A DNA stretch of 64,000 nt from Semisulcospira habei (Eukaryota; Mollusca; Gastropoda; Semisulcospiridae): NCBI GenBank assembly GCA_036245525.1, contig BTPG01000004.1:229680153-229744152 (forward strand). Reading direction: 5' to 3'. Of this stretch, positions 16,501 to 34,850 are shown piece after piece. Numbering within the stretch: the stretch's first letter is position 1; each line of letters starts with the position of its first letter. Made by a program: the position numbers and the translations under genes. The notes beneath the pieces were generated by a model that was given only the letters and a program-made list of their open reading frames with translations, was not told the origin of the DNA and did no database searches.

Positions 16501-17440
16501 CCTGCAGCGCATCACGTCTTGCTTCGCAGATGCTGCCCAGCTCTTTGGACTCGAGGTCAGTCTGAAAAAGACAGAGGTCCTCCATCAGCCGGCACCCAAG
16601 ACAGTGTATCGCCCTCCTCACATCACCATTGGCGAGTCTGAACTAAAGTCAGTGCACCAGTTTACTTACCTTGGCTGCATTATCACGTCGGACGCCAAGC
16701 TGGACAAGGAGCTTGACAGCAGGCTGGCAAAAGCGAACAGTGCTTTCGGGCGACTTTTCAAGCGGGTGTGGCACAATCAACAGCTGAAAACAGGCACCAA
16801 GATCAGCGTGTACAGAGCTGTGGTCCTCACCACCCTGCTGTATGGTTCCGAGTCCTGGGCCCTCTACCGCAGCCAACTACGACTCCTCGAACGCTTCCAC
16901 CAGCGCTGCCTGCGTACCATCCTGGGCATTCACTGGAGTGACTATGTCACCAACGTCGAGGTCCTTGAACAGGCTGAAACTGTGAGCATCGAGGCTTTGC
17001 TGCTGCGGACACAGCTCCGCTGGGCGGGGCATGTCTCCAGGATGGAGGATCATCGCCTACCAAAGATCACCCTGTTCGGCGAGCTTGCTACTGGACACCG
17101 TGACAGAGGGGCACCAAAGAAGAGATACAAAGACTGTCTCAAGAAGTCACTTAGTGCCTGCCAAATCGACCACCACCAGTGGTCTTCGCTTGCTGCGGAC
17201 CGTGACACCTGGCGCTCCACCATTTACAAGGCAGCTGTCTCCTTTGAGGACTCTCGCAGAGCTAGCCTTAAGGACAAGAGGCTCAGGAGAAAAAACAGAG
17301 ATGCCGCAGCTCAGAACCCTGACCAGACCTTCCCCTGCAGCCACTGCGGTCGAACCTGCCTGTCTCGGATTGGCCTCCGCAGCCACGAACAAGCCTGCAG
17401 ACGTCGTGGGCAACTCCTATAAAATCTTCGTTCGCGAAGT
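13583..17440 (+). mobile_element. Full-length APE-type non-LTR retrotransposon (LINE)
   Basis: The ~612-bp 5' UTR starts at the base where the 8038 copy also starts and leads into one long intact ORF. The 3' boundary is uncertain, because no poly-A or simple repeat tail and no clear target-site duplication was found between 17423 and 17620. Fragments of the same family lie at 8038-8668 and 56143-56871, almost identical in sequence, so the family amplified recently. Confidence 0.85.
14195..17422 (+). CDS. LINE endonuclease-reverse transcriptase polyprotein
   Basis: The 1075-residue ORF is open from ATG (14195) to TAA. It nicks target DNA and reverse-transcribes the element's own RNA. Residues ~5-270 form an APE-like endonuclease: VACWNVRTM near the start, then LSEVRLPDEG, ILGDFNARVG and a terminal HTDHRLV motif. 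The central reverse transcriptase has NYRGITLLS, FVDLTKAFDTV, NGVKQGCVLAPTLF and the catalytic FADDAALV. The C-terminus has a zinc knuckle-like motif CSHCGRTCLSRIGLRSHEQAC. No stop or frameshift is visible, so the enzyme could be functional. The clade is not certain from sequence alone (RTE/Ingi/Nimb-like possible). Endonuclease, RT and terminal zinc motif together match a full-length single-ORF LINE. Confidence 0.93.
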   Translation: MTTTTGLNVACWNVRTMLDKADSGRPERRSALIAHELRRLNIDIAALSEVRLPDEGSLQELGAGYTLYWSGRPASERRLSGVGFMVKTSIATKLENLPTGHSDRIMSMRLPLRHQQHVTLLSVYSPTLLAEPAEKDKFYTDLRSLLQSTPADDKVIILGDFNARVGQDSEAWKGVLGKHGVGNCNDNGRLLLEFCAEQQLVITNSTFQQKDSRKTTWMHPRSKHWHLIDYVLVRQRDRSDVLLTRVMPSAECHTDHRLVRCKLRLHFKPKPKKWGPPKKKLDVASLQRDDVKAAFQTDLQRRLKDTADPVDSSPETLWEQLKTAIAKSSAEVLGFARKKNKDWFDENDVEIQEHLAKKRAAHQAHLAQPSCPVKKSAFRLVCSSLQRKLRDLQNEWWTRLAQRTQLCADNGDYRGFYEALKAVYGPRHLVQSPLRSANGQALLTDNTSILNRWSEYFQSLFSAERTVQEAVVLQIPHLPVKVELDEPPTAEETLTAIHQLKSGKAAGIDGIPPEIWKHGGTALHNKLHDLFLCCWEEGTLPKDLRDAVVITLYKNKGEKSDCSNYRGITLLSIAGKILARLLLNRLVPAIAEDQLPEGQCGFRANRSTTDMVFVLRQLQEKCREQNKGLYVTFVDLTKAFDTVSRQGMWQILERLGCPPKFLNMIVQLHEDQQGQVRLNNDLSEPFPILNGVKQGCVLAPTLFTIFFSMMLKQATVDLDDDDAVYIRYRLDGSLFNLRRLQAHTKTLDQLIRELLFADDAALVAHTERALQRITSCFADAAQLFGLEVSLKKTEVLHQPAPKTVYRPPHITIGESELKSVHQFTYLGCIITSDAKLDKELDSRLAKANSAFGRLFKRVWHNQQLKTGTKISVYRAVVLTTLLYGSESWALYRSQLRLLERFHQRCLRTILGIHWSDYVTNVEVLEQAETVSIEALLLRTQLRWAGHVSRMEDHRLPKITLFGELATGHRDRGAPKKRYKDCLKKSLSACQIDHHQWSSLAADRDTWRSTIYKAAVSFEDSRRASLKDKRLRRKNRDAAAQNPDQTFPCSHCGRTCLSRIGLRSHEQACRRRGQLL

Positions 17441-17656
17441 CAAGCCAAGATGTCTGTGTCTTCACCAGCAGTGTTGTCTCTGTCTTCACCGGGCATCATA
17501 TTCCTCAAACAGTGGTGTTTCTGTGTCTGTGTACCCTGTACACAAAATTCACCAAATAGAAAAAACAATGTTAAATGTTTAGGGCTTAAAGTCTTTTGTC
17601 CACCACAAAGGTGATCTCAAAGACGGGCACCGAAAAGAGGTATGTACAAATTTTGA

Positions 17657-17690
17657 CCTGAGCTGGGTTCAAACCCAGGACCTTTTGTCT
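17657..17690. other. tRNA T-arm-like palindrome at edge of block A
   Basis: CTGGGTTCAAACCCAG resembles a tRNA T-arm/B box and forms a perfect short stem. No A box or cloverleaf is present. The stop codon of the neighbouring 17669-17974 ORF lies within it, so that ORF's last residues may come from an inserted SINE remnant. Confidence 0.3.
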
Positions 17691-17974
17691 TCGCCAGTAA
17701 CAAGAAAGTATTCTTTGATCGCGTCATCGACATTTGAAAATGTATGCTGTGCGTGACCCTCAAGCCTGAGTTTTTCATTGATGAAATCAAGTTTCTCAAT
17801 TCTTTGCTTCTCATAATCTTGTTGGGCTTGTGCCAGTTTTTCAGATGCCTCATTGTGACGCTTCATTTCTTCTGCAGATTCCTCTCTACCCATTTTTGAA
17901 AAAAGATAGTTCGATCCACTGAAAGCCAATGCGTTAACAACGGCCCCACCAATCATAATAGCTATAGTTGCCAT
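17669..17974 (-). CDS. Virus-like cluster A, small membrane protein (101 aa)
   Basis: Start ATG at 17974. An N-terminal hydrophobic segment (residues ~2-26, with GGAVVNALAF) is followed by a charged, probably helical stretch (~28-75, EE/KR/Q-rich). Function is unknown. Membrane-tethered helical proteins of this layout fit a virion or membrane-remodelling role, but that is inference. It is the last gene of a minus-strand run of eight closely spaced ORFs, only 9 bp from the next. The C-terminus ends in a tRNA-like palindrome and may be replaced by inserted sequence. Confidence 0.6.
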   Translation of the reverse strand: MATIAIMIGGAVVNALAFSGSNYLFSKMGREESAEEMKRHNEASEKLAQAQQDYEKQRIEKLDFINEKLRLEGHAQHTFSNVDDAIKEYFLVTGEDKRSWV

Positions 17975-17983
17975 ACTTTTTAT

Positions 17984-18214
17984 TTACATAGAAACATTTT
18001 CTGGAATAATTCCTTGCTTGACGAGAAGGTCTTTTGTGGCAATCGATGCTGTGACAACTGCTACTAGCTTAGCACTGTCTTCAAAGTCTAATCTACTAAA
18101 GTCTGCCGATTTCATTTTGAGAAGACTTTCCCCCAGCATAGAATAAGCAACTGTTAGCCCGCTTATTACGGCAGAGTGATAGACGAGGTTCATTATGTTC
18201 TTTGTGTCGCTCAT
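17984..18214 (-). CDS. Virus-like cluster A, 76-aa hydrophobic protein
   Basis: Start ATG at 18214. It has hydrophobic stretches at residues ~12-28 (VISGLTVAYSMLG) and ~48-60 (KLVAVVTASIA) linked by a charged segment. It is not recognised. Its compact position between two ORFs in the same strand supports a real gene. Confidence 0.55.
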   Translation of the reverse strand: MSDTKNIMNLVYHSAVISGLTVAYSMLGESLLKMKSADFSRLDFEDSAKLVAVVTASIATKDLLVKQGIIPENVSM

Positions 18215-18250
18215 TTTCTTATGCTACAAAAATTAAAATAATAAATTTAT

Positions 18251-18673
18251 TTACTGCATGTAAAATGGGTCTAAAGGTTTTGACACTGCTGGTAATGTGG
18301 AGACTTCTTCTTTTATTTTTGGAGTGTTTGATTTTTTGGACACTGTTCGAGTGTTTGGTTTGTATTTTTTGTATAATTGGTAACCTACGTAACCAAATCC
18401 GAGAACAAATCCAGCAACTATATATTTTGTTGTTTTGGGTTTAGACTCAGTTGTTTGTCTCTTACTTTGTTGGGGGTGTGTTGGTCATGACACCGGTGCT
18501 GTTGATGGTGTGTCAGTCTTTTGTGTTAATGTCTGAAGCTGTAATTTTTTTGGTCTGTTATATTCAGCTAATCTTTTTCCAGCCTCTATTCGACCTGGAC
18601 TTTTAGTCTTAGTCACCGTTTGAACTTGTGTCAAGACAGGACTCTGATGTGGAGTCGTCTGGGTCTCGTCCAT
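18251..18673 (-). pseudogene. Virus-like cluster A, single-TM protein with internal TGA
   Basis: Start ATG at 18673; TAA at 18251-18253. The N-terminal ~60 residues are polar and T/Q/K-rich. An in-frame TGA at 18485-18487 interrupts the frame. Downstream, the same frame stays open through a hydrophobic segment (AGFVLGFGYVGYQLY) and a basic tail. The start overlaps the end of the upstream ORF by 65 bp in another frame. Function unknown. Confidence 0.55.
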
Positions 18674-19130
18674 TTTCTTCTAATTTAAAATTTATTTTAG
18701 AAAAATCGATATGACTCCCAGTTACAAGCAAGGTTACCACAGGTGCAAGGTAACTGCCAAACTTGTAAAACATAAGGCATGCTAATTTGCCTATTGAACT
18801 TAAAACTATGGGGTTGCTTTCTAGATCATGTGAAAGGCTGTCAGTATCTACAGGTAGGAAGTGACTCACAGCTTTTGTGTATAGGCAGACAAGAGATCGA
18901 CTCAAATCACGTGTCATTAGTGAAGCAATGTGATTTTCATATTTAGCATGAAGTTTGATTAGCTCGTCAGCGGTGAGGGATTCTATGTCTTCTGTCATGT
19001 ATTGTTTACCGAGAAAAGCTTTTGATTTTCCACAAACAACTACAGAGAGAAGACGTTGTTTTTTAGACTCTAAGTCTTTGTTTTCTACAGCGCAGATATC
19101 GCTTAGAAGAAGTAATTTGTCTTGGTTCAT
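18609..19130 (-). CDS. Virus-like cluster A, 173-aa protein, unknown
   Basis: Start ATG at 19130. The N-terminal two thirds are mixed charged/hydrophobic. A hydrophobic stretch at ~residues 112-140 (KLACLMFYKFG...APVVTLLVTG) may be a membrane or buried helix pair. The C-terminus is acidic and Ser-rich. No motif is recognised. The 278-bp gap upstream (19131-19408) contains short direct repeats of GTTAACTTT and 'cttataagttctt' that may be regulatory or slippage products. Confidence 0.55.
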   Translation of the reverse strand: MNQDKLLLLSDICAVENKDLESKKQRLLSVVVCGKSKAFLGKQYMTEDIESLTADELIKLHAKYENHIASLMTRDLSRSLVCLYTKAVSHFLPVDTDSLSHDLESNPIVLSSIGKLACLMFYKFGSYLAPVVTLLVTGSHIDFSKINFKLEENGRDPDDSTSESCLDTSSNGD

Positions 19131-19408
19131 TTTATAAATGACACAGCCTTGCTTGGACCTGTGAATAACTTATGAAGTTACTGTTCATGTAACTTTCTAG
19201 AATAACGTGATCTTACTTGATAACTAATTTCAAAGTTACCTACAACTTACAAGTAACTTTGACGTTAACTTTGACGTTAACTTTAAAGTTAGTTGTCACA
19301 AGTTCTTATAAGTGACTTAAAATAAGTTCTTATAAGTTCTTGACTCCAGGCAATAAGACACTCAGACAGATTTCTCAAGTTACAAGGACAACAAGAAAAC
19401 TTTTTTTC
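19131..19408. repeat. Spacer with short direct repeats inside cluster A
   Basis: Repeated gacgttaacttt/aagttac and 'ttcttataagt' words occupy the only sizeable non-coding gap of the cluster. A promoter or origin role is possible but nothing in the sequence proves it. Confidence 0.4.
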
Positions 19409-20149
19409 TCAGTAGTACTCTGGTGGTGGAGCTGATGGCGTCAAATGAGCAGGCATAAAAGGCATGACATCTCTTTGCGAAGAGTATGACAAATTTAATG
19501 AACAATTGATTTTTACTTGCTTAAAAGTCCTTGAACTTTTTTCATAGTTTCTTCCACCCCTATTTTTTTTTCTTTCCTCTAAAAAAGATTGCTTTAGCTC
19601 TTCAACATTCACGGGTTGACTACGCATCTTATTCTGTATTTCAGATTTCTGTTGTTTGTAATTGGCCAAATCATCCTGCACTCTTTTAAATTCGTGATCA
19701 TCAATTTTATTATCGTCTAAAGCCTTACTGATAATAAGTTTCATACTGCTCAGCTTAGCTCCAGCAAGCGTACTCAATGCTTCATGCTTCTGCAACTTTG
19801 TATGAAATCTTTTGTTAAGGGCTTCCATACCAAAGCATGCCAGGCCTGTGGCAGCGCCGACACCTTCAATAGCAATTCCTATGACACTTCCAAATCCAGT
19901 GGCAAACAGAGCTAAACCAGTGACAGATAATCCAGCTGAAACCACACCCACGGCCATTGATGTGTTGTGTACAGAATTGAAAACCGTTTTGTAACGTCGT
20001 TTACACCTTGAGTATTTTGCTTGTTCTCCTTCCAAATACTTCAACGCTTCTGTAATATTCATTAAACGGAATGAGTCTGCCTGTAATGTTTTATCTGGAA
20101 CAATAGGATCAAGCGGCTCAGGTGGTATTTGTGGATACAGTGGTGGCAT
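19409..20149 (-). CDS. Virus-like cluster A, membrane protein with PSAP/PPEY tail
   Basis: The first ATG in frame is at 20149 (246 aa); upstream codons are non-ATG. The order is: Pro-rich start (PPLYPQIPPEP), charged segment, long Ala/Gly-rich hydrophobic region (~residues 63-108, with two likely membrane helices), coiled-coil-like charged region (~120-195), basic KKNRGG patch, and a C-terminus ending PSAPPPEYY. PSAP and PPxY are known ESCRT/NEDD4-recruiting late-domain motifs in many viral and cellular proteins. Their function here is inference. The gene is intact. Confidence 0.65.
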   Translation of the reverse strand: MPPLYPQIPPEPLDPIVPDKTLQADSFRLMNITEALKYLEGEQAKYSRCKRRYKTVFNSVHNTSMAVGVVSAGLSVTGLALFATGFGSVIGIAIEGVGAATGLACFGMEALNKRFHTKLQKHEALSTLAGAKLSSMKLIISKALDDNKIDDHEFKRVQDDLANYKQQKSEIQNKMRSQPVNVEELKQSFLEERKKNRGGRNYEKSSRTFKQVKINCSLNLSYSSQRDVMPFMPAHLTPSAPPPEYY

Positions 20150-20178
20150 TTTTTTGGACAAATATTTTTTTATTTTAT

Positions 20179-20729
20179 TTAATCTTCTAATTTATTTTGC
20201 AACTCTTCAAAGGTATACAATTTGCTAGCGTAATAAAATGAAACAAGATCTATGTGCTCCAGGTTTATGAAACTTAGATAAACTAGAGTTGTTTTATCAA
20301 TCACTACCTTAACAGCAGGGACACTACTCGAAACTTCAAAATCTGTATTGATTTTTCTAATAGCAATAACAACCATTGTTGACTCTGCTACTGAGCTATC
20401 CCACGTAAGTTTGATTCCCTGTGCGATATTTGCTTCTTTCACAGCTTCCACAGATCTCATGAGAATTTCAAAAACTATTGTCGCTTCTCTATCTATGGTA
20501 CATTTGCTGGTACGAACGAAATAGAAGTATCTGTTCTACCCTTTCTATTTGTAAGAAAATACCTTCGTTTCCCATACTCTTGAAGTTTTAGTTTTTCTCT
20601 GCTATTGGTTTCGGAATAGCTTGGCACAAGACTTACAAGCATTGGCTCAGAGTTAACAACTTTTCTAAATACTAAGGCACCTTCATCAGTAAAATAAACA
20701 TAAGGACTGATAAAAACAAACTTTACATC
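20179..20729 (-). pseudogene. Virus-like cluster A, ~180-aa protein with frameshift
   Basis: A downstream ORF (20179-20460 and upstream to ~20510) and an upstream open stretch (~20520-20725) are in different frames and read as one gene broken near 20515. I could not find a clean ATG at the 5' end, next to the stop of the preceding ORF. No motif is recognised. The composition, alternating hydrophobic/polar, suggests a beta-rich soluble protein. Confidence 0.5.
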
Positions 20730-21026
20730 CTATATAATGGGAATAGGTGCAAGCGGAACAGGGGTAGGAATAATTACCCACTTATTACCCACATGTTTTA
20801 AGCTGTAGAGCACATTACTTACAGGAGTAGGAACAGTAACATCACGAAGTTGACCAAGTTTAGGAAACTGTCTCTCAGCGCCATCTTTTACATCATCAAT
20901 TACCTTTCGTTTGTACAATCCAACAGAAACAAGTTCAAGGCCGTACACCTCTCCTACCTCACCTTCTTTATCAAAATCTTGCACGTCAGCCAAATCTTTC
21001 AACTCTATTGACGGACATTGGACCAA
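20730..21026 (-). CDS. Virus-like cluster A, 98-aa protein, start uncertain
   Basis: The open frame begins at a TTG; the nearest ATG (~21037) is in another frame, so the 5' end may be frameshifted. The C-terminus is Pro/Val/Ile-rich. Function unknown. It ends directly at the start of the next gene and lies 32 bp from the 248-aa ORF. Confidence 0.45.
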   Translation of the reverse strand: MVQCPSIELKDLADVQDFDKEGEVGEVYGLELVSVGLYKRKVIDDVKDGAERQFPKLGQLRDVTVPTPVSNVLYSLKHVGNKWVIIPTPVPLAPIPII

Positions 21027-21058
21027 GACCGCTCATTTTTATAAAACAAAAATAAAAT

Positions 21059-21805
21059 TTATTTCACTTCCAACACAACAGTAAAATCATGCATCTGAAC
21101 TGGTTTACCATCCTGATTAGTTACAGATAAACACAGTGATTCAAAGAAACTGGAACCTAATTTTTTAAACTGCAAATTAGGAAATCTAGCAACCACACTT
21201 TTACAATATGGGGCAGTTCCAGTCGGAAAGCATCTTAACAAAGTTGAAGGCTTTCCATTGTGTACATTTTCAGTCGTGTTTAGTTCCTTTAAATAAACAT
21301 TTAGCAATGTGTGTACTGACAAATGAACAGGGTATCTTCCAGTTATTTTATCTCCAACTGTCGTAGGTAACCAACCCTCAATATTAGCAGTTCCAAAACC
21401 AAATGCCCAATTCTCATCCTTAGAAGTTATATGTTTGCCTATTAAACCAAGCAAATATGCAAGTTCACGTGAAATTATAGGGTGACTACCTACAGGAAAT
21501 TTTAATGTAACACGTAAGTTGGCCGGATTTAAAGTTGCTTTAATTTTTAATTTAGTTTGAAACCATTCAGCTAAAGTACAAAAGTCATAATACCCAGATG
21601 GTATAAAGTGTGTTTTAGTGCCCAAGCCACTATTACCAGCATTGCTATAACTTACATGAAAACTTGTATCATCTGTTACATTAAACCACTTTACAGTGTA
21701 GAACATTTCATGGATAGCTACAGCTTTGCTACCATCATGATTATCTATTCCATTAGTTAACCACACTGGTTTGCTTGTGTCAAGATTTGTTAAGGTAATA
21801 AACAT
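21059..21805 (-). CDS. Virus-like cluster A, candidate minor capsid (penton-like) protein
   Basis: Start ATG at 21805 (248 aa, intact). The sequence is beta-strand rich with few charged helices. A conserved-looking centre (SRELAYLLGL) and a C-terminal sheet-like stretch (LCLSVTNQDGKPV followed by a V-rich strand) resemble the single-jelly-roll minor capsid proteins that accompany double-jelly-roll capsids in Polinton-like elements. This is a pattern judgement, not a demonstrated homology. It is transcribed divergently from the 21832 ORF, with only 26 bp between start codons, so a compact bidirectional promoter must lie there. Confidence 0.5.
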   Translation of the reverse strand: MFITLTNLDTSKPVWLTNGIDNHDGSKAVAIHEMFYTVKWFNVTDDTSFHVSYSNAGNSGLGTKTHFIPSGYYDFCTLAEWFQTKLKIKATLNPANLRVTLKFPVGSHPIISRELAYLLGLIGKHITSKDENWAFGFGTANIEGWLPTTVGDKITGRYPVHLSVHTLLNVYLKELNTTENVHNGKPSTLLRCFPTGTAPYCKSVVARFPNLQFKKLGSSFFESLCLSVTNQDGKPVQMHDFTVVLEVK

Positions 21806-21831
21806 TTTTTATTATCACATAAAAAAGCATA

Positions 21832-23489
21832 ATGGAATTTAAATCACCAACAATTACCACTGTAAATGCATTTCAATTTAACGTGGATGCCAAGTACAAT
21901 GTTGTGCCTACTTATGACCAGAAAATAATTCAACTAAATCAGCTCGATATAGCTTTGTCCGAAGGAGATTTATTTCAAGTAAAAGTACCCAACCCTTATG
22001 ATCATTATCTAAACCCTCCAATAACAGATGATGCAACTGCAAGAAAGTGGTCCTCAAGCCCACTACAGAGGTTTCAAAACCAACTTAACTTTGCTATACT
22101 ATGCTCAACTACAGGCTGTGGCGTTTCTTTTACAGACCATTTGAATCACCCAAACAAACTGATTAAGTCTGTCTATCGTTTCCACACGTATTACCAGCTT
22201 AGAAGAATACTGTCAGAACTCCATACACCACTGCCCACTGAATCCAGTTTTAACCAGTTTAACAATCCCATGGATTTGAAAGCATTTGAACGGATCTGTA
22301 ATGAATTTAACATCAGTACAAAGTATGACTTTACACAAAAACTTGATGATCACAAAGGCATGGGTACATTGTATTATGCTATGAGTCACAGACAATACCC
22401 TCAAGATTACTGGCCTCCCTACTCTTCAGTCTCATCAAAATCTGAAGTGTGGTTAGGCTCAATTGAACAGAAACAGTCTAATGCCTGGACCACATTTGTC
22501 TTAGACAGGAGTGACGGGTTTACTCAAGCAGGAGTCGAACGCATTAATGAGTCTATCAGAACATATGTGTGGTGTATTCTAGGAGCACAAGCTCAAACAA
22601 AATCAAACATCTTAAACGGTAGTGGGAAATTTGAAGCACAAAAGCAGTTTCTGGCAAACCTGGAAGATTCAATCAACTCAACAGTTGATCTCCCGTCAAG
22701 CATACAACACTACCAAGACGTTCTCAGATATGCGAGATCGAAAGTTGACTTTGTAGTTGGCATTGGGTTATACATGTTACCATCTGACCTTCAACTCCAA
22801 ATGGGAACAATAACAAATTATAACAACGAAATAATTGTTGCTGGTGTTGGTCAGAAATTAGGACTCAATCAATCTGTAAACTTGGGGGCCACAACCACGC
22901 ATGTACAGTCATTAAAACCATTAATAACACCAACACCAGCCACAGTAACATCATCACCTGTGCCTGTACAGACAGTAACAGCCCTGGCCCCGGATCCAAC
23001 ACCATATTGATTGATTGTACATTGCTTAACGTCCCGACAGCAACAAGGCCCTCTCAGGACGTGCCTCCACCGCTTGTGAAAAAAAACCAAAACAGAACAT
23101 TGAATGTATGTCGCCAGCCGGTCAAATACGTTAAATAAACCTAACACATGGGGCCTAAATAAAGCTAAGACCATTTAGCAACACACATCCAATATCAAGA
23201 GCTACAGGCAGTGCAGACAGTAGGGAGAGTTTTAAAAAGGCAAATACAGGTGAATGGACAAAGGGTAGACAGAAACACATGCCCCAGAATAGAGAGAAAA
23301 ACCCACCCTGTGGGGCTGACCAGGGTGACCCTGGGAACTAAAAAATACCTAACCCCACCCAAGTCCCCCAGGGCAGACCCGGGTGGGGAGGATCCAACAC
23401 CAACCCTTGACACACATGAGTCAGAGAGAACAGCATTGGTAATAGGCTTAACGGGATTAGGGGTTTTACTTCTTTACCTGTTTCATTAA
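21832..23489 (+). pseudogene. Virus-like cluster A, ~400-aa protein split by R1 insertion
   Basis: Start ATG at 21832. Codons run open to 23004, where an R1 retroposon (23005-23389) interrupts the gene; the interrupted ORF ends in the repeat at 23010. The target GGATCCAACACCA is duplicated at 22992-23004 and 23390-23402. The same frame continues after the insertion to TAA at 23487-23489. That last part holds a C-terminal hydrophobic anchor (ALVIGLTGLGVLLLYLF). The main body is polar and soluble, with a Pro/Thr/Val-rich linker before the break. It is therefore a probable type-II/tail-anchored protein of unknown function. The existing copy would lose its anchor. Confidence 0.7.
23005..23389 (-). 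repeat. R1 retroposon inside cluster A gene
   Basis: Near full-length R1 with a perfect 13-bp target duplication (22992-23004, 23390-23402). The target lies inside coding sequence. Confidence 0.85.
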
Positions 23490-23562
23490 ATATCCCTCCT
23501 ACTGTCACCAAAAAGACCCATACATGCTCCGCCATAAACCCTACTACCTTTGCTGCTGTACT

Positions 23563-23936
23563 ATTGATTGTACATTGCTTAACGTCCCGACAGCAACAAG
23601 GCTTTCTCAGGACGTGCCTGCACTGCTTGTGAAAAAAAAACAGAACATTGAATGTATGTCGCCAGCCGGTCAAATACGTTAAATAAACCTAACACATGGG
23701 GCTAAATAAAGCTAAGACCATTTAGCAACACACATCCAATATCAAGAGCTACAGGCAGTGCAGACAGTAGGGAGAGTTTTAAAAAGGCAAATACAGGTGA
23801 ATGGACCTCGGGTAGACAGAAACACATGCCCCAGAATAGAGAGAAAAACCCACCCTGTGGGGCTGACCAGGGTGACCCTGGGAACTAAAAAATACCTAAC
23901 CCCACCCAAGTCCCCCAGGGCAGACCCGGGTGGGGT
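23563..23936 (-). repeat. R1 retroposon, adjacent second insertion
   Basis: Perfect 14-bp target duplication TTTGCTGCTGTACT at 23549-23562 and 23937-23950. It inserted independently of the copy 170 bp away, because each has its own target duplication. Confidence 0.85.
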
Positions 23937-23950
23937 TTTGCTGCTGTACT

Positions 23951-24690
23951 GATCAGCCAACTGACAACACAGTTCAGCGACTAAGTCCTAGCCAGCGACT
24001 CATGGCAAGTTGGAGCACAGCTGTTAAATCTCACCCGAGTGAGGCACGCAGCTAAAACCTAACCATGCCATATACCCTGACACTGTTGGAGTAGGCAGTC
24101 TGAGAACAGCCCCTCCCATTTGGCCAGAGGGCATACAGCAAACGTAGGAAGGGTCATGCACTCGTGGCGTTATCTATGCATGCTAATGTAACAGAGAAGC
24201 AGAGTTCGCCATTGATGTGTGATGTGAGTGGTACTGACAGTTCGTAATCACAGTCTATAGAAGAGCGTCCCCCTTCCTGGTTATCTACATAAATAACGAA
24301 AAGTATAAGCAGGATTTCAAGGGCTTAAGGAAATATTTAGAAGTAAATATACTGCCATTTACGTCTGTATTCCTGAAGCTGAAATATGCCGACGGCGGTT
24401 TCAAATACACTTGTCTGTTAAATCTCAAGACCCAGGTACCGTTATGTTTCACAACTGCATAACCTTTTAGTCTGAAACATCGTACTGTACAATGAATTCC
24501 AAGGTCTCCATGTAAATCAAAGATTGTATGAAAGTCATAGTTAGCATTTAAATTTTGCTGTCGTATGGATTAAATCGTAGGTTGCTATGTTTTGTCATTG
24601 ATTAGTTACTGTTGTTTTTCTGGTGTGCAACAAACTCAAGTTTTCACTTTAAACGGTCCATTGCTGACCATTTCGTGATCCGTGCCGGAG
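23951..24690. other. Intergenic region upstream of spliced gene
   Basis: No repeat or coding exon recognised. A promoter for the spliced gene probably lies toward the right end. Confidence 0.3.
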
Positions 24691-26604
24691 AGTGATCACG
24701 TGGTGATTCTTGAACCGCTGGGAGCGAAAGCCCGCACAGTCTTCGTCCACTTACCTGCCTCACTGACCTCGTAATTATTTATCACTTCGTACCGGCTGTG
24801 TCTTCAATCCAAACTTCGCTGGGACAACCGTAAGTTTGAATTTTTTAGTATTTAAAAGGTCTCGCTTATGTAGTGGTCTTGATGCTTTTGTTGTTTTGAT
24901 TGCATGCTTATTTCACGCTTTTCTTGCAATTCCCTGCCATAACGTTGCATACTGTGGTAAATCATGGGAATCTGTGATGCTCTACAATAATGTTCTTTTG
25001 TTATTGTTTGATTTTTCTTCTTAATTTAGTTGATGCTTCAGCGTTTGTTGTTATATGAAGGTTGCTAAATGATACTGTTTGTATGAAGTAAAATGTTACC
25101 CACAATTTCTAATAATGTACTCACTACGCTTTCAACTATTGTCTTATCTGCAAAAGGGATTGTGTTCACTCATTTGCACACTGCACACGTCACGTTATTT
25201 CTTCACTGAGTTCTAATGCAGGTATTTTGCAATTTGTGTGTGTGCAAAAATCACAATTCAGTTTTTAAATATCTGAACGATTTTTACAAAGTAAAAAAAG
25301 TATTTAATGACTTTATAAAATTGTTATATTTGTCATACCAAAAGTATCTGTGATACCAAGCCCTCTTCTTCTCTTTTTTTTTCAGGGCATCATCACGTGC
25401 TTCGATGTCTTTAAAGAGCTTACCAACTATTTCACACCTTAACGTCTACGAAGATGGAGATGATGTTTGGCTTTCGTTTGAGGAATTTTTACAGTTTCTT
25501 AGAGATAACATAAAAAAATCGGACACTGCCACAAATTTAATAAGAAGAGACAATCTTGTTCGAAAATTCAAGAAAGCGTCAGAATTCAGAGATGGCGTGG
25601 GTCTGGAATGCAAGAAAATAACTGTGGAGGCAGCTTTGAAATTTATTTTCAATAATTCTGAGGCACTCGCAATTTGCAGCATAGTTGCCAGGGAGGTGAG
25701 GAACTGCATTCTGAACCCGGCAGCTGCATCAGTGCCCCCCGAAGTGTTGTCTGGTGTGAAAACGATCAAAGATCTATATGACACTATCGCTGCCAGTTGT
25801 TTGCATGACAAGAAACTCGACGATTTTTTTTCTCTGCACTCCGCAACAGATATATCAGAGCTGAAGACAATAATACAAACTACAAAGAGTGCTTTTCGTC
25901 CTTACAATGGGAAAAGATCGCTCTGTTTGAGTATCACTTTCACAAAGAGAACGAGAACTGCGTCACCTTTCAGGGACGTAGCGGGCCACTCCGGCGCTCC
26001 GGCGACCGCCGGAGTACTTTTTGGACAAAAAAAAAAAAAAAAAAGAGCGCGAGAGAGAGAGAGAGCAAACCTGTCGTGGTGTCAATACTTTGCAAGTGTA
26101 TTCATGTTTACCAAAAATGGCATGTTTGCGCCAATAGCTCAGTGCACCACTTAACAGTGGCTGGTAAACAGAAAAGTGTCAATTTAATCGCCGGTCCAAG
26201 AACAAAAGCTACTGGCCGAAGTGCATCAACACAACAGACTTCTGCACCACTAGCTCCACCAAGTTAGCAGTGGTAAAAACAGAAATAAGAAGGACATGAG
26301 GCACCACTCGCAAAAGCCGCACGCCGACTCCACTGAAACGGTAAAAGCCTCACAAGTCATGACACATTAAACGAAGCAGAACGACCTCCCAATAAGAACT
26401 TGAACCAACTGGCATTGGAAATATCTTATTCCTACGCGTATACGCGCCACACCGCAACCAATACAAGGTTCCCCCCACCCCCACCCCCCAAACAACGGGG
26501 AAAAGAAAACGGAATAAACCAGAAAAACCGCCAGACTCAGTTTTGAACTATGAAATCATCATAGGACCAGCACACAAATGGGCGGGGGAAACTAAAGAAA
26601 ATAC

Positions 26605-26895
26605 ATGAGGACAAGAAACCTCCCACACTTTCAAACAATCCTACTAGCCGCATTCATCTTCTCCAATGGACTGAATCCTACGATATTCTTTGAATGGGTC
26701 GACTTCATGGGCCTTTGCAGAGACAAGGGAGCAAGGAAACAACTAGAATACCTCTTCGTATACTTTAATGAGGGCAGATACAGCAAAGCTTTGTACGCCT
26801 ACGACATCATTGATCAACGGGCGCTCGAATACTTAGACGGAACCCCGAAACACCACAGACAACCACGGAATTGTCCCACCAACAATCAAAACTAA
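26605..26895 (+). other. Unidentified open frame inside hAT-like element
   Basis: The 96-codon ORF from ATG has a coherent composition (hydrophobic LLAAFIF, then charged helices and YLDG). I do not recognise it. It may be a fragment of another mobile element. Confidence 0.3.
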
Positions 26896-27399
26896 GGGCA
26901 CGACATGAAAAGAACACACCACCACTCTCCACTAGCCTTTCCAAGTTATAGTGTGAGCGAACAATACAAAATAAACCACAAAATAAACTACCATAAAGCC
27001 TAACAACAAAGGTTTACTCAGTCAACAAAAACAAAAGGGTCAGCACGCTGATGAAGGCAGCCCTTAGCCAATAAAGGCTTAAACATGCCCGAAATACACC
27101 TGACAGCTAACTCAAAACGTGACTGATTTGTGAATTGTCATATGGGTATACGGCTGGTCACATCAAGCCATCACACAGTGGTGTGCGATGTACCAAAACA
27201 AAAAAGATCACTTATGCACGAGGCTCGATTGAACCACGTCCACAAGTCTAAAACTGACTCACTCCACTTGATTCGTGTTGCCAACAACTTTAATTGTGGC
27301 TTCTGCAGCACTCAGAGAAAACGTTTGTAGGACATTTTCTGAGCTGGATGTGTCAAGAAACCAATCATAAAATCATAAATCAGTCCCTCGAGTGAGGTG

Positions 27400-28955
27400 T
27401 TTTTCTGTCAGAATTCAAATCAGCCGTTGTCAAACCTCTCCTGAAAAAGTCGAATCTTGACCCCAACCAGCTAAAGAACTATCGCCCCGTTTCAAACCTA
27501 CCCTTTCTTTCTGTCCAAAGTTCTTGAGAGAGTCGTTCTGACATAGCTCACTAAATATCTACAGTCAAACAATCTCGTCCATCCGCTTCAGTCTGCTTAA
27601 CGTGCTGGGCACAGTACTGAAACTGCTCTCCTCTGTGTCGTTAATGGCCTCCTAAGTGCCCATGATGAAAACCTGATCTCAGTTCTTGCCCTGTTAAACC
27701 TATCATCTGCGTTTGACACCATTGACTACTCCATCTTGCTCCAGCGTCTAGAAAACTACTTTGGTATTTCTGGTAAGTTCTACTCTTATCTGTCTTCCCG
27801 TCAGATTAACGTCTCTGTCAAGAACGCTCTTTCTGAAGCTGCTGCGCTAGAGTTTGGGGTCCCCCAGGGCTCTGTCCTGGGCCCCATTCTATTTACGCTG
27901 TACACTCAGCCTCTCTCTCAGGTTATCGCATCGCATTCAAACGATCATCACATGTATGCAGATGATACACAACTTCCGAAATCTGCACCTCCAAACAGCT
28001 CCAGTCAGGCTATTTTAGATGTTCATAACTGTATCTCAGATATGATTAAGTCCTGGATGTGTGAAAATAAACTCCAGTTAAACGAGGGCAAGACAGAAGC
28101 TCTTCTTATCGGTGCCTCTCGACTGCTGCCCAATTCTCCTGACTCTATGCACATTTGTGACGCACCTATTCCATTTTCTGATTCAGTTCGCAATCTTGGC
28201 GTTTTTCTTGATAAAGATCTTCAAATGAAGGACCATGTAAATCATGTCTGCAAAATTGCTTTTCTGGAATTAAGACGTATCAGTTCTATCCGTCATTACC
28301 TCACCACTGAATCTGCCACCAAACTGGTCGTCTTTTTAGTCTTGTTCCGCATTGATTACTGCAATTGATTACTTAGCTGGCCTCCCTCGGTCTCTCATTC
28401 AGAAATTGCAGTGAGTTCAGAATTGTGCTGCACGTCTTATCGTCCACGCTTGACAGCATCAGCCCATCACTCCTATCCTGAGACAACTTTATTGGCTGCC
28501 AGTCAAACAACGAGTCTCGTACAAAATCGCCTGTCTGTGCTACAAAACTATTAACTACTCTGCCCCTGTCTATCTCCCTGATCTTCTTCAACTATACACT
28601 CCCTCCCACTCCCTCCGTTCAAGTAGTGACACGGCGCGCCTTCTCGGAGTCCTGCTCTGCAAACAGAGGTGACCGTTGTTTTGCGCACGTTGGACCTCAG
28701 TGTTGTCTGGAACTCTCTCCATAGATATTAGACATTCTCCCTCATTCACTGCCCTTAAGACCCACCTATTCGATACCCCAATGTAGCTCGCGCGCAGTTC
28801 TTCGTCAGTGGCCGTTATGTACCTGTGTGTTTGTCTGTGCGTGTGTATTGCAGAATCCTTTGTTCCTCTGGCTCTACTCCCACTCTTTATTTGTAAAGCG
28901 CTAAGAGCTTATTTTAGTATAAGCGCTATATAAGTAGCCATTATTATTATTATTA
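27400..28955 (+). mobile_element. 5'-truncated CR1/L2-type LINE
   Basis: RT signatures in order: [10 protein letters not shown] (~27470), then an ORF 27736-28368 with FGVPQGSVLGPILF and the catalytic YADDTQ, then LGVFLDKDLQ. Frameshifts and stops lie before and after. The 3' end has 'taaagcgctaagagctt...ataagcgctatataa' followed by (ATT)n, a typical LINE tail. It is nested inside the hAT-like element and is non-functional. Confidence 0.8.
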
Positions 28956-29549
28956 AGAACCAATGTGCTTCAAAAATCCCGTGCAACACAAACGTCTGCT
29001 GTCAAAGTTGATTCAGGAGACCCAAAGCTTTTGTGATGAACATTTCTTCATGTATTATATCTCTTTTTTAATTTTGTTTCGCAAGTCTCATATACAACAA
29101 ACGATCTTCAACTCTGACTTGTAATCTTCTAACTACAGAAAGGCGAGTTTGTTTACTAATTCATTGGTTTCCCCATGACCACATGAAGGATTTCAACAAT
29201 TGTGACATTTCCCAATTCTTGATTCCAAGCCAGCATATCATAGGTAAGTCTGTCTTTGGATGTGAATGTTGTTTCTTAGTAAAATAGAGTTAACATTTTA
29301 GTATCAATAAATAAGCGTCTGGTCGCCATCGTCCCTCAAATAGTTTTCGACTTTCCAAAACCGCCGGACTACTTTTCTCATGCCCGCTACGTCCCTGCCT
29401 TTGAATATGAGGAACTGTGTCGAAAAAAATGGCTATACTGGGAGACTTGTCAAACATTCAAAGGTGACTATTTGGCAGAGATGGGCACCAGGTCCATCAG
29501 GACCGAGAATAAACGCCAGTCTGTTGGACGTGTTGTGCATGGCTTGTGT

Positions 29550-29697
29550 TTTTTTTTTTACGTACAGTGTGTGAGTGAATGCGTGTGATTCACGTGAGCG
29601 TGCTTGTTGGGCTCAGTTCGCGGCTACATTCTGCGCATTGAGTTATATTATAAATATGAGAAATGCGCCATATAAATACCATGTAATAATAAATAAT
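29550..29697 (+). repeat. SINE R2, 3' part
   Basis: Shares 'cgtgagcgtgcttgttggg', 'cagttcgcggc' and 'gcgccatataaatacc' with the full-length tRNA-SINE at 62420-62825, and ends in an AATAATAA tail. It is inserted in the coding exon of the spliced gene. Confidence 0.6.
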
Positions 29698-30083
29698 GTG
29701 GACATGGTTTTGCTCCGGACGTCAGCAGAGGAATCAACACAGCTGTCCAATTTCGCGACGAGCATGGTCTTTGGTCTGTCTGCAATTTGGCAAGAAGTGA
29801 ATGTCGAAATGGGCGGAATCATTCAGAGAGCAGTTGATCATGACCCCAGCGTCATCGGCGTTGCGAGTACACAAAGGGGAGAACTGAAGGGTACGTAAAC
29901 TGTTGCCTCTGTATTCCTCTCCGTGACAGTTATTGTAGCTTGTACATGATCATACAAGAAGATTTTGTTCGAGCTAATGACTGCCTTTGTTCTTATGTTT
30001 GAACTTTTATAATTGCAGAAACAGTAACAAGTAGAACAGATGGAGCTGTCAGGAGACAGGGAGTTCTTCAGACGCAACACTGA

Positions 30084-31158
30084 ACTATGGACTTTTGTGA
30101 ATATAACACTGAAGATACTGAATTAGTAACAAACGTTGCACTCATACACCGATATGGCGGTTTACGGCATAATGGTGGTCACCTTTCATCATAACCTTGG
30201 ACCGAAGCACTCAAGACATTTTGAAACTGTTGTTCATAGTTGAGTTAAAGTGTTAATTATGTATTAATGCGTTAGTTCATGTATTGGTTTTCTTACTTCT
30301 TTCTCGGCGGTTTTATTGCGCTACCATAGTGCGTCGGATCCACAGCGGTTTGTGTCGGGCATTATGTCATATTATCGGCACATAACAACGATGTACATCA
30401 ACATTGTATTGTATTGTGCTCCCGCTTATGCTATAAAGTCGCTAGGTGTGAACTTTGTGATGAAGGGGTTACCGCCCAAATGACGCTAATGAAAGTTTAA
30501 GTTATATATGACCTCTACTAATTGGTCATAGTCGTGCCCGCTTTTCAAGGAATTGATACCAGATATAATAGTGTTGATATTTGCTGTAATTTCACGACAT
30601 GTCGCTTTGAAAAGTATTGCAACTTGAAATGGTTTCTTTAACATAATATTTATGCTGTAGACCGCTGGTGCTCATGCACGATACTTTAAGCACGCTTACT
30701 TGTGTGAGTGTGTGCGTGTGTACTTTCATTAACGTCATTGGAAAGCATGATCAAGTACTCTGATCAGTTTTATACATCAGAGAACAAACTGTGTGCACGG
30801 CGAGGTTTTCGTTTTTTGGCTGGAGAGGACCGATCGCCGGGTTCTGTTGGTCTCTCTTCAACTCTAACGCTGTCTTCAGCAGTACTGAAGTGAGGAACAC
30901 AGCTGCATATTTCAAGATGCAATTACTGTGAAATAAACTGAACCCTCATGAGAATTACTCATGTGCCTCGTTCATATCAGAAAGCTTTGCTGCAGACGCA
31001 GATTCACCAGCAATGATTCTCTCACTATAGTGAGCACAGATGTAAATCCTGGCACAAATGTAACAAACGCCTCCTCTATAAATTAATTATCTGCTTATGA
31101 GAATCTATGCTGTTTAAATGCGGAAGGTGGTGGCTGCCCGGTACTAGCACGCCTTAGT
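30084..31158. other. 3' UTR of spliced gene and spacer
   Basis: AT-rich. AATAAA near 30932 is a likely polyadenylation signal. A short H2-like word (ttatgagaatctatgctg) is near 31095. No other gene seen. Confidence 0.35.
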
Positions 31159-32341
31159 TTACTGATTAAACTCGACGGGCTTGCGGCTGGTGTTTATGTT
31201 AGCTGTCAAGTGTTGCGGAGACGCGTGTAGGGGAGGAGGGGATGCGTTTCCCCACTCATCCAGCTGCAGTACTTTGTCGCTAGACTGAACACTCCCTATT
31301 ATGCCAGGCAAAGCATCCATTGCTTTTACAGCTAATTTCTGAAGCAAGTCTGATATATGAGACAGCTGTTTTTTTACCCATGTCTGTAAATCTTTTGGGT
31401 CTGATGGAACTGGAGGAGATGGGGGGGCAGGTGGAGCTGGACTGCTACCACCACCCGTTACAGCTAACACTACAGTACTGATAATAAATCCAAGAGCAGT
31501 AATTAAACTTGCAATAGTGATACCCTGCGCTCAGTGTTTTCAATCTCTCAGCCAAAGTTGTGTCTTCGTGAAGTATTTTCTGAATAGTTTCTCTAATCCT
31601 GTTGTTCTGTGTTTTCAGTTTTTCTTTCCCAATTTCAACTACTTCTAACCGCGCTGATCTTTCTATCTGCAAATCATTTAATCTGTGTTGTATTCTTTCT
31701 TTCATTTCTGTGTCATAATTCTCATCATCAGCTTTAGCTAATTTTTCTTTTTCTATGTGATTATCAAGCTCGCCTAGTTTGGCTACATTATTCACAAGCT
31801 CACCTCTGATTGACTGCAGTGTTTTATCCAAGCCCACTAACTCCCGCATTGTCAAAGGAGAGTCTTCTATTGTTTTCATAGCCTCATTTATTTGCCCTTC
31901 TGTAAATGAAGTTTCTTGTATTACTGTGTTTGCTAATTCTGGCAGTCTTGTTACTTCAGTCATTTCAATTTCTTGTCCAGTTGGCAACCTTGTTTGCGCA
32001 TCATGAAGAGCACTAGCAAGACGAGGTGGTAACTGTTTATCTCCAATACCAAGTTGACGCAAGGTGCCAACACCACCTTCATTTTTTATTGTACTTAAAG
32101 CTCTAAACTTACCAGGGTCTCCTTTGTTAGTCAATTGTACTTTTCCTCCGTCAACAGTGTTTAAATATAAATGACCTTTTTCATATTCAAACTGATTAGG
32201 ATCTATTTCATCTGGGCGGTCACCAACACTATCATAAAATGAGTTCACTTTGTCTTTTAACAGTTTGTGATACATACTAGAAGTATTTACCATTCCAGTC
32301 ATATCTGTTGCACCAGTATCATAGTCATTCATGTCATCCAT
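31159..32341 (-). pseudogene. Virus-like cluster B, ~390-aa coiled-coil/TM protein with frameshift
   Basis: Start ATG at 32341. The N-terminus is acidic; residues ~150-270 are strongly heptad-like (E/K/L-rich), suggesting a coiled coil. A frame change near 31527 shifts into a second ORF (31159-31470 extended upstream). That ORF opens with a hydrophobic segment (TIASLITALGFIISTVVLAV), then a Pro-rich linker (PAPPAPPSPPVP) and an amphipathic helix region. The layout (soluble coiled coil, membrane helix, Pro-rich region) suits a virion-associated membrane protein, but function is unknown. It is divergent from the capsid gene, 75 bp between start codons. Confidence 0.6.
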
Positions 32342-32416
32342 TTCAAATCTTCATGGTTAAATCCTCCCGCTGCCATTGTTTTTATTAATTAATTTTTTTG
32401 ATTTTTGCATAATAAA

Positions 32417-33701
32417 ATGACACAGTCAAACGGATTGAAGTTAGACCCATACAGAAAACTATGTGAACCTCTTGGTGTTAAGGGCATTCGGCAATCAATT
32501 GTCGTCACTAACAATCCTAGCTCCATAGACCAAAACCAAACTCTTACAGTCAAGTTTCCAAACCTAGGTCCCAGTGACGTTATTGTTCCTGGTACTGCAC
32601 GCCTTGCATTTAATATCGAACTTTCATCAGACACAGACGTAAACAGAACACTAGTTAACAATCTTGGCAGAGCAATTATAAAAACTATTAAAGTAAAACT
32701 TGAAGGACAGGAAGTGTTTAGTCTTGACGATGCTGATGTATTCTATTGTTACAAAGATTTGTGGCTTACACGGGAAGAACGAGAGGATCGTATTTATCAA
32801 GGCATACAGTCAGATAGCATTATGAAAATTTGAATCAATGCACGTGATAAATCAACCACAGCAGCCAAGGACGTTATAATGGCAGAAACATATGGAAATA
32901 GGTTTTGCATTCCACTTGAGTTTGAAATCCTAACAGCGCATTTGCCTTATTACCAAGGAGCACTGAATGATCGCCTGAGCTTTGAACTAATCTTTAATGA
33001 CTACTCCAAAGTTATCAAATCAACGGATCTCAATGCATCATATAAGATCTCTAACATTTCCTTGGAATATGAGATTGTCACACATGCTCATCTAGCTACT
33101 CTCATACAAAATCAGTACCGGTCAAGACTGCCGATTTATTATGACCGTGTGATAAGACACAGTTTAATTAATAAAAACAAAAGCAACCAGATTTGGAATA
33201 TCAACCTAAACACGCCTGCTAGGTCACTGAAAGGCATTCTTATGTTGTTTTGTTGAACCAGGAAGTCCATACCAATGAGATTCAGAAAAATTCTATAATC
33301 CGAAAATTACACATTTATCCTGTACAATCGAAGGACGCCCAAATCAAGTCTTCGCGTCGGGAATGATGGGATACCAGCATTACAACGAGATCACAAAGTA
33401 TTTTGCAGGGGGGAGACTTAGAGATAAACCAGCAAACATAGCATGCAAGGATCTGCATCTGTATGATGTAAGAATCGGCGAATACCTGACAAACAAGTAT
33501 GCACTGTGGCTAGATCTTCGCAGTACGGACGATGACTTTCTTCATGGGTCTGGCCGTACTATCGAAAACGGCAGTGACGGGATTACAATTCAGATACAGA
33601 AAAAGACTGAAAAAGCCGAAGCAATAAATATATATCTATATCTGATTTATGATGCTCAACTGAACATTTCTGAGAGCAGGCTAAGCGCTCACGTGTATTA
33701 A
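32417..33701 (+). pseudogene. Virus-like cluster B, DJR-type major capsid protein, degraded
   Basis: First ATG in frame at 32417 (an upstream TTG is not a credible start). Total coding length is ~430 codons. Strand-rich text with FPNLGPSDVIVPGT, NNLGRAIIKTIKVKLEGQEV and YCYKDLW matches my knowledge of double-jelly-roll capsid proteins of Polinton-like/adintovirus-like elements, where such blocks form the first jelly roll; the LPYYQGALNDRLSFEL block fits the interior. Breaks: in-frame TGA at 32831-32833, a frame change near 33250, and a second TGA at 33276-33278. The last open part is 33363-33701. This copy cannot make a full capsid protein. Confidence 0.72.
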
Positions 33702-33711
33702 AAAAAATCAC

Positions 33712-34410
33712 TTAGCTTTTCAGTTGTTTTGGTTTTAATCCTTCACAGCCCATTTTGAATAAGAAATGCACCAAATCACGATAAAATCCGAACGTGTTAG
33801 CAGGCACGTCACGCTTGTGCGGTAAACTCAGACTAAACTGGGCATAAAAGGCGTATAGAACAGCGTCGTCCCCACTGAGCATAAACAGGTATCCGTTTCA
33901 CTACCGATTTCAAGCATGCCTTTCTGGTCATGAAAGGGATGCAATCTAATAAACTCACACACACGGCAGGTGTTATATTGACTACACAAAAGCTTGTCTG
34001 GCTTGATTCTCTTCCTGCTCTGGTCCAGGTGTTTATCCCTGCTAAGATCCGGTTTCAATTCAGTACAATACAGGCACCCGATTTTATCGTTATACTGTTC
34101 ACTGAAAAAGTATCCAACCTTTTTGTAACTGGATTATCGTGTGCCTGTAAATCAAACTACGCATTTGTGTCGTGAAATACGAAACCACTCACACCCAATT
34201 TTCTCCTCGCGTGATTTGTTGATCTAAAACACTCGTAAACAGTGTGGGTGTATAGTGACTTTGAATTAGGTCTCTCTGGGAGTAGAGTGATGGGTTTTGT
34301 CTTTCAATTTCAAATGCGTCGTAGGTTGGTCTGTCCGGATGTGTGCTTGGAATGAAAACAACAACATTTTCTCCACACTTTGTCAGAAAAACAAAATTCT
34401 TTTTCTCCAT
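33712..34410 (-). pseudogene. Virus-like cluster B, ~230-aa Cys-containing protein, frameshifted
   Basis: Start ATG at 34410. Three open stretches in different frames (34190-34410, ~33900-34120, 33712-33905) read as one protein with at least two frame breaks. The middle part has Cys pairs (CLYC; CRVCEF), possibly metal-binding. The gene is convergent with the capsid gene: stop codons are 10 bp apart, which supports both being real and from one compact element. Function not recognised. Confidence 0.5.
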
Positions 34411-34559
34411 TCTACTACTAACTTGGCGCGTCCTAATTATTCAGGAATGACCTGGTGATCTATATTTGGAGAAAAACCTATATTCAAGATTTGTCCCACA
34501 TATAAAATGTTCTAGTGCCCTAGTGACATAAATTTGAAGCGTTGACACAGAACGGAATA

Positions 34560-34850
34560 ATTTGGCCTGATATGTCTGTGTGTGCGAAGTTGGTGGCTTT
34601 GTGGGGGGTGGGGTGGTGAAGTGTGAGTGTGTGGGGCTTTGTGGGGTGGGGTGTTGGGGGGGGGGGGGGTGTATAGGGTGTGGGTGTGTGTGTGGGGGGG
34701 GGGTGTAATATGGTAAGGGGTGGGTGGTGGGGTGGCGTGTACAGGATGTGGGGGGTGGGGGGGGGGGGGAGTGTATAGGGTAAGGGGTGGGTGGTGAGAC
34801 GGCGTGTATAGGATGTGTGTGGAGGGGGGGGAGAGGTGTGGGGTGTGTGT
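34560..34850. repeat. G/T-rich low-complexity region
   Basis: Imperfect ~90-bp repeats of (tg)n, gggg and 'gtgtataggg(t)gtg'. The minus-strand Pro/His/Thr-rich ORF here is a compositional artefact. Confidence 0.85.

What the first reader, a model, noticed from the sequence alone, without database searches (positions are those of the whole stretch)
17669..34410. Compact virus-like gene cluster in two blocks around a spliced gene
Seen: twelve ORFs in two blocks (17.7-23.5 and 31.2-34.4 kb) with gaps mostly under 50 bp, two divergent start pairs (26 and 75 bp apart) and a convergent pair with stops 10 bp apart. This is unlike the sparse, intron-containing surroundings. Known: LGRAIIKTIKVKLEGQEV- and YCYKDLW-type blocks fit double-jelly-roll capsid proteins of Polinton-like/adintovirus-like elements. 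Inference: both blocks derive from one endogenous DNA-virus-like element, now split. No polymerase, integrase or ATPase is in the window, so it may be a poorly described lineage or a partial copy.
Basis: partly seen in the sequence, partly recalled or inferred. Interest (0 to 1): 0.88.

Follow-up and report, generated by a model that had tools for sequence, protein, structure and literature searches.

The report
Broken Polinton copy split by insertions
The two gene blocks are the right-hand part of one decayed copy of a virus-like mobile DNA element (a Polinton, or Maverick) that later insertions pulled apart, and sister copies in the same genome look like mixtures of each other's genes.

Summary
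The two blocks belong to one element. In ten sister copies fetched from the same ~2 Gb genome they adjoin in 9; in the tenth a 4.3-kb insertion separates them. In the window they are parted by a 385-bp repeat with a 13-bp target duplication and a 7.7-kb insertion, whose longest frame is a repeat with 39 other scored copies. A sister copy carries the missing ~7 kb: A32-type ATPase, polymerase-like frames, rve integrase. Long terminal inverted repeats begin AGAGATG; of 61 terminus sites 38 form 19 inverted pairs; 12 of 12 copies checked have 5-6-bp target duplications. This is a Polinton (Maverick); the window copy is partial and decayed, its right terminus at 35731. The jelly-roll fold was not shown. 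Among copies 11 of 12 genes tested, capsid included, show purifying selection. Copies look mosaic: gene g has allele groups up to ~20% apart, neighbouring f is nearly uniform, and capsid trees reject g's groupings. I read this as a recombining, probably virus-like population; gene conversion is not excluded. New member of a known kind.

The parts
17686..17974 (-). gene a, 3' part lost at the left break; in sister copies it carries on with a C-terminal hydrophobic segment
   Evidence: sister frames of 145-148 aa from ATG or stop; 7 of 7 copies compared go on left of 17686 with shared sequence of 418 bp or more
17984..18214 (-). gene b, 76 aa, open in the window
   Evidence: dN/dS 0.17 among 7 copies
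18251..18679 (-). gene c, broken by a stop in the window
   Evidence: open in 3 of the stretches listed
18609..19130 (-). gene d, 173 aa, open
19409..20149 (-). gene e, 246 aa, two hydrophobic segments, C-terminus PSAPPPEYY (late-domain-like; label recalled)
   Evidence: PSAPPPEY encoded in 7 of 8 copies searched in all frames; in c1, c2 and c5 it lies outside the open e frame
20179..21050 (-). gene f, about 290 aa in copies, broken in the window by a stop and frame changes; nearly uniform among copies
21059..21805 (-). gene g, 248 aa, open; three allele groups among copies
21832..23004 (+). gene h up to the insertion; stop-to-stop frames of 419-431 aa in four copies
23403..23489 (+). remainder of gene h beyond the insertion: hydrophobic C-terminal tail
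23005..23389 (.). SINE-like repeat inserted in gene h; target duplication 22992-23004 / 23390-23402 (13 bp)
23563..31262 (.). composite insertion parting the blocks; holds a second copy of the repeat, a LINE reverse-transcriptase piece and a repeated frame; 11-mers at its edges agree at 10 of 11
31263..32341 (-). gene i, stop-to-stop frames of up to 421 aa in copies, frame change in the window; C-terminal hydrophobic segments
32417..33701 (+). predicted major capsid protein gene (427 aa in copies), broken in the window by a stop and a frame change
33839..35054 (+). right terminal inverted repeat, inner part
   Evidence: matches the left end of copy c9 in inverted orientation
35055..35667 (.). 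further insertion in the terminal repeat, TTAGAAC present on both sides (35048-35054, 35668-35674)
35675..35731 (+). right terminus of the element, ending CATCTCT
14195..17685 (+). LINE ORF (to 17422) and other sequence up to the left break; the integrase, polymerase and ATPase part is not found in the window

Best explanation
The locus is the right-hand ~9.3 kb of a decayed Polinton (Maverick). The whole element is about 16.5-19 kb with long terminal inverted repeats starting AGAGATG. It carries an A32-type packaging ATPase, a polymerase with PolB-like motifs, an rve integrase, a predicted major capsid protein and nine further proteins a-i, four of which (a, e, h, i) have strongly hydrophobic segments. 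Mechanism: the integrase inserts the linear DNA and makes a 5-6-bp duplication (duplication shown, enzyme inferred). The polymerase copies the DNA from its ends (inferred). The ATPase packages it into capsids (inferred). Purifying selection on the capsid gene, similar to that on the integrase, says that capsid function mattered for spread (selection shown, virion inferred). Element lineages recombined: gene f is almost uniform while its neighbour g has allele groups up to 20% apart (pattern shown; sweep and coinfection inferred). The window copy lacks the left ~7 kb, carries three insertions, and has several genes with stops or frame changes.
For: Blocks adjoin in 9 of 10 sister copies. ATPase Pox_A32 E 1.1e-15 and rve E 1.8e-11 in copy c9; rve E 8.8e-9 in copy c5. 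Inverted terminal repeat 94% identical over 671 columns in c9. Terminus pattern at 61 places, 31 forward and 30 reverse, backwards control 0; 19 inverted pairs, 9 of them spanning 16.5-20.6 kb. Target duplications of 6 bp in 6 and 5 bp in 6 of 12 copies (counted by eye). dN/dS: polymerase piece 0.07, h 0.13, integrase 0.15, capsid 0.15. The published Maverick layout fits: 12.7-24.6 kb, terminal repeats 46-1447 bp, AG-type ends, 6-bp duplications (PMC8097293, passages).
Against: No Pfam DNA_pol_B_2 match to this polymerase (none of the 10 places is a copy studied here); the PolB label rests on recalled motifs. No adenovirus-type protease found in the frames scanned; the genome-wide search for it was uninformative. 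No penton identified. Jelly roll not shown. Half of the duplications are 5 bp, not 6. dN/dS of gene c (0.83, interval 0.42-1.88) does not differ from neutrality.
Confidence: 0.93

Rival explanations
1. The mosaic pattern comes from gene conversion between copies already in chromosomes, not from recombination of free element DNA during infection.
For: Many similar copies exist. In the closest pair, c7-c8, gene f differs by 0.013 against 0.025-0.031 in g, h and the capsid gene, so some homogenising may be recent. One search lists frame-changing length differences shared by several copies in e, f, g, i and the capsid gene; some mirror changes of the window itself, alignment alternatives or allele differences, but copies c1, c2 and c5, which g separates, share a different end of the open e frame, and c3 and c9 share one in i.
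Against: The window's own stops are private: seen in 0 of 10 (capsid), 0 of 9 (f) and 0 of 7 (c) copies, and its frame change in gene i in 0 of 10. The shared change in e lies at a single-base run, where shifts recur easily.
Confidence: 0.35
2. Gene f is uniform because its nucleotides are constrained (overlapping gene or cis-acting element), not because of a sweep.
For: f is less divergent than the intergenic region: 0.030 against 0.082. dS is 0.050 against 0.15-0.31 in the other genes except c (0.07).
Against: dN/dS of f is 0.47 (0.27-0.86), nearer neutral than its neighbours, as expected of mutations after insertion. I did not test systematically for a conserved overlapping frame.
Confidence: 0.25
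3. A separate, integrase-free virus lineage with only the right-hand genes.
For: No polymerase, integrase or ATPase sequence is found in the window outside the terminal repeat.
Against: 7 of 7 copies whose left flank was compared continue past 17686 with shared sequence, and copy c9 holds these genes between its two termini.
Confidence: 0.02

Closest known systems
Polintons / Mavericks of animals (Krupovic et al. 2014, PMC4028283; Barreat and Katzourakis 2021, PMC8097293)
   Same: Size, long terminal inverted repeats with AG-type ends, 5-6-bp duplications, rve integrase, packaging ATPase, capsid-like gene, purifying selection on virion genes
   Different: No adenovirus-type protease or penton recognised here; polymerase not matched by Pfam DNA_pol_B_2; proteins a-i have no convincing family; copies look like gene-by-gene mosaics
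Polinton of the coral Stylophora pistillata (mentioned in PMC11071308, section read)
   Same: Cited there as an animal Polinton with an unusual polymerase layout; kinship with the present family is a guess
   Different: Could not be compared; no sequence at hand
Adintoviruses / meldviruses (PMC11071296, passages)
   Same: Animal-associated, rve integrase and capsid-like gene
   Different: BLASTp-recognisable Hexon and PolB could not be tested; no chromodomain match on the integrase

Membership tests
Polinton (Maverick) | rve-type integrase | tested here: met
   PF00665 E 1.8e-11 in copy c9 and 8.8e-9 in copy c5, both over the cut-off
[quoted passage not shown]
   Exonuclease- and palm-like motifs incl. 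YTDTDS read in the frames (motif labels recalled); no Pfam, PHROGs or PDB polymerase match; only an endonuclease-VII-like stretch
Polinton (Maverick) | FtsK/A32-type packaging ATPase | tested here: met
   Pox_A32 E 1.1e-15 in copy c9
Polinton (Maverick) | double-jelly-roll major capsid protein | tested here: inconclusive
   Capsid_N E 0.021-0.022 on the window fragment only, below cut-off; none on a full sister frame; no PDB match; this protein was not modelled
Polinton (Maverick) | single-jelly-roll minor capsid (penton) | tested here: inconclusive
   No family match; models of g and h failed
Polinton (Maverick) | adenovirus-type cysteine protease | tested here: inconclusive
   No match in the frames scanned; Peptidase_C5 rang neither in this genome nor in the 14 controls
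Polinton (Maverick) | terminal inverted repeats and 15-25 kb length | tested here: met
Polinton (Maverick) | 6-bp target duplication | tested here: met
   6 bp in 6 and 5 bp in 6 of 12 copies
Adintovirus | Hexon and PolB recognisable by BLASTp against adintoviruses | not testable with these tools
   protein database off; no adintovirus sequences used
Adintovirus | integrase with C-terminal chromodomain | tested here: inconclusive
   only rve reaches its Pfam cut-off in the two integrase frames scanned; a divergent chromodomain could be missed

The most novel reading that the evidence does not exclude
The copies are a fossil sample of a recombining virus population: lineages coinfected cells and exchanged genes, one gene (f) swept through the lineages shortly before a burst of insertions, and the neighbouring gene g was kept as three allele groups with a divergent core, as expected of a surface or recognition protein under balancing selection. 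The insertion record then lets the population genetics of an unseen animal DNA virus be read from one host genome.
Probability: 0.28. Interest if true: 0.72.

Novelty: new member of a known kind. Interest (0 to 1): 0.5.

Why it matters
Maverick virus particles have not been observed, according to the abstract of PMC8097293. A family with many mosaic copies in one genome is indirect evidence for a phase in which lineages meet and recombine, and it points at two genes (f and g) whose roles can be tested. It also adds several conserved genes without a known family, one of which encodes a C-terminal PSAPPPEY motif.

Tried and rejected
Relatives in IMG/VR: three protein queries gave none. A DNA pattern gave 14 stretches; none aligned to the capsid pieces, only chance-level matches (E 0.25-0.84) to other pieces were seen. 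An earlier pattern scan was void because its spacing was one base off. INPHARED phages: no match for two proteins. PDB by sequence, 5 searches: one 25-residue match to a designed repeat protein (E 0.00036) that I take for chance, the rest E 0.7 or none. AlphaFold2 without an alignment: two failures, so no fold search was run. Rfam and tRNA scans were empty. Gene-by-gene copy counts did not complete, so no total copy number is given; 5895 and 508 are first-look candidates, not copies. A separate integrase-free lineage was rejected.

Weak points. The ten copies are the ten best matches to the capsid stretch after the window, so the sample leans to similar copies; not all reach across every gene (c2 and c10 only in part, c9 with deletions). 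dN/dS used chosen long open frames (3-7 per gene) and dropped codons in stretches under 70% identity; without that filter, and with somewhat different sets, values were higher (g 0.52, f 0.65, e 0.39, capsid 0.25 with L038). AU tests with g's groups: the capsid data reject two (p 0.00066, 0.0022), h rejects one (0.0034) but not the other (0.055), f cannot decide (0.27; c7+c8 0.17); g and h do not conflict on c7+c8. f's small distances do follow those of d, e and i (r 0.72, 0.53, 0.52). On re-checking I lowered the novel case from 0.30 to 0.28 and raised gene conversion from 0.30 to 0.35, because of the frame end in e shared by c1, c2 and c5.
Full report
Observation. The window holds two compact ORF blocks as described. 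ORFs of 200 aa or more number 3 and 1, against means of 0.000 and 0.005 in 200 Markov resamplings of each block. Several listed ORFs are fragments of broken genes (capsid, f, c, i), and the last two lie in the terminal repeat region.

One element, split. The genome (G000, 1.98 Gb, 507 contigs) gave 40 scored matches to the capsid stretch 32400-33400, the window and 39 others at 92-94% identity, from 5895 first-look candidates. I fetched ten of these copies (c1-c10). Window 17686-23004, 23390-23562 and 31263-35054 lie in the same order in them as far as each copy reaches. The junction 23562/31263 is direct or within 25 bp in 9 of 10; c2 has a 4.3-kb insertion there. c9 has deletions in block 1, and the stretches of c2 and c10 cover block 1 only in part. 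The window's inserts are a 385-bp repeat with a 13-bp duplication, a 7.7-kb composite whose edge 11-mers agree at 10 of 11, and 613 bp at 35055 with TTAGAAC on both sides. The longest frame between the blocks, 25354-26154, is a repeat over its first 617 bases: 39 other places scored, 95-98% identical. The forward frames of the inserted stretch show only a LINE reverse transcriptase; the reverse frames were not scanned.

What the element is. Left of 17686, 7 of 7 copies compared share further sequence, from 418 bp to over 3 kb. In c9 this side holds an rve integrase, polymerase-like frames and an A32-type ATPase, then a terminal repeat 94% identical, inverted, to its right end. Outside the terminal repeat the window shows none of this. 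The terminus pattern, up to 3 mismatches, occurs at 61 places, 0 for the backwards control. Nineteen inverted pairs span 1.2-36.5 kb, nine of them 16.5-20.6 kb. Twelve copies with both ends read have a target duplication each: 6 bp in six, 5 bp in six (counted by eye). These match the Maverick features in PMC8097293 (passages) and PMC4028283 (first of four parts of the text).

How it works. Shown: insertion with a 5-6-bp duplication, a linear unit with inverted repeats, and selection. Inferred from the named families: integration by the rve enzyme, end-primed copying, packaging by the ATPase into a capsid. Pairwise dN/dS (500 bootstraps): polymerase piece 0.07 (0.04-0.12), a 0.12, h 0.13, capsid 0.15 (0.10-0.20), integrase 0.15 (0.10-0.22), b 0.17, d 0.18, e 0.22, i 0.26, g 0.30, f 0.47 (0.27-0.86), c 0.83 (0.42-1.88); the upper bound is under 1 for 11 of these 12. 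The capsid gene was thus kept about as strictly as the integrase. PMC8097293 draws the same conclusion, from purifying selection on virion genes of fish Mavericks, that they spread through particles and reinfection (passage).

Gene e. PSAPPPEY is encoded at its 3' end in 7 of 8 copies searched in all frames, and in the window. Of the five copies whose open e frame was printed, c4 ends with it; in c1, c2 and c5 the open frame ends in a different shared tail and the motif lies in another frame, and c7's frame stops short. That is either a frame change at a single-base run or a programmed shift; I did not test which. Such motifs recruit ESCRT and Nedd4 factors in other viruses (abstracts), so a role in membrane passage is a guess. 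The two papers that hold both 'Polinton' and 'ESCRT' (listing only) were not read.

Mosaic copies. Mean pairwise distance is 0.030 in f (36 pairs, maximum 0.045), 0.138 in g (28 pairs, up to 0.209), and 0.052-0.092 in the other regions. g falls into {window, c3, c5, c6}, {c1, c2, c4} and {c7, c8}. Distances in g do not follow those in f, h or the capsid gene (r 0.12, 0.17, 0.06), while d, e and i follow each other (r 0.67-0.86) and f follows them in part (0.52-0.72). With g's groups taken to other genes, the capsid data reject both tested (p 0.00066, 0.0022), h rejects one (0.0034) and not the other (0.055), f does not decide. The window copy is close to c3 in e, f and g (0.022-0.030) but not in the capsid gene (0.076), and close to c4 in e and i (0.032, 0.034) but 0.198 away in g. 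In six g proteins aligned, the variable part is the core, about residues 44-155, between conserved ends. The window's stops are private, but some frame-changing differences are shared among copies. I conclude that element lineages recombined; free element DNA before insertion is my preferred setting, conversion between insertions is not excluded. Of 106 papers found, 15 were listed; of 14 found, 10 were listed, none holding 'Polinton'; no title listed reports this pattern. In PMC8097293 the recombination passages seen concern ectopic recombination.

Limits. The PolB, late-domain and capsid labels rest partly on recall. No fold was obtained. The sample is ten copies chosen by capsid similarity. 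Host identity and total copy number are unknown.

Noticed in passing
G000, 10 places, e.g. C4:3166149-3167450: Pfam DNA_pol_B_2 finds 10 polymerase stretches elsewhere in this genome, none at the copies studied, so a second Polinton-like or plasmid-like lineage is probably present.
   Followed up: no
window 19409-20149; L024, L025, L031: In copies c1, c2 and c5 the open frame of gene e ends in a shared tail other than PSAPPPEY, which lies in another frame just beyond: a shared frame change or a programmed shift.
   Followed up: partly
window 36649-38711: Three tandem arrays (77-, 74- and 55-bp units) next to each other, right of the element.
   Followed up: no
window 34593-34849: G-rich degenerate repeat inside the terminal inverted repeat, reading as Pro/His/Thr-rich frames on the other strand.
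   Followed up: no
G000:C8:72205370-72206527 and C3:252946867-252948187: Two very short pairs of termini (1.2 and 1.3 kb apart), perhaps non-autonomous derivatives; their interiors were not read.
   Followed up: no
window 14195-17422; L041; L043:2802-6096: A LINE with long open frames; a 99%-identical stretch interrupts the element in copy c10, and a similar LINE lies about 3 kb left of copy c9.
   Followed up: partly
L037:5121-6599: In copy c8 a LINE with a reverse-transcriptase domain (RVT_1 E 1.4e-36) interrupts gene f.
   Followed up: no
window 23010, 23563, 36212: Three copies of a ~380-bp SINE-like repeat, two of them in the insertions of this element.
   Followed up: partly
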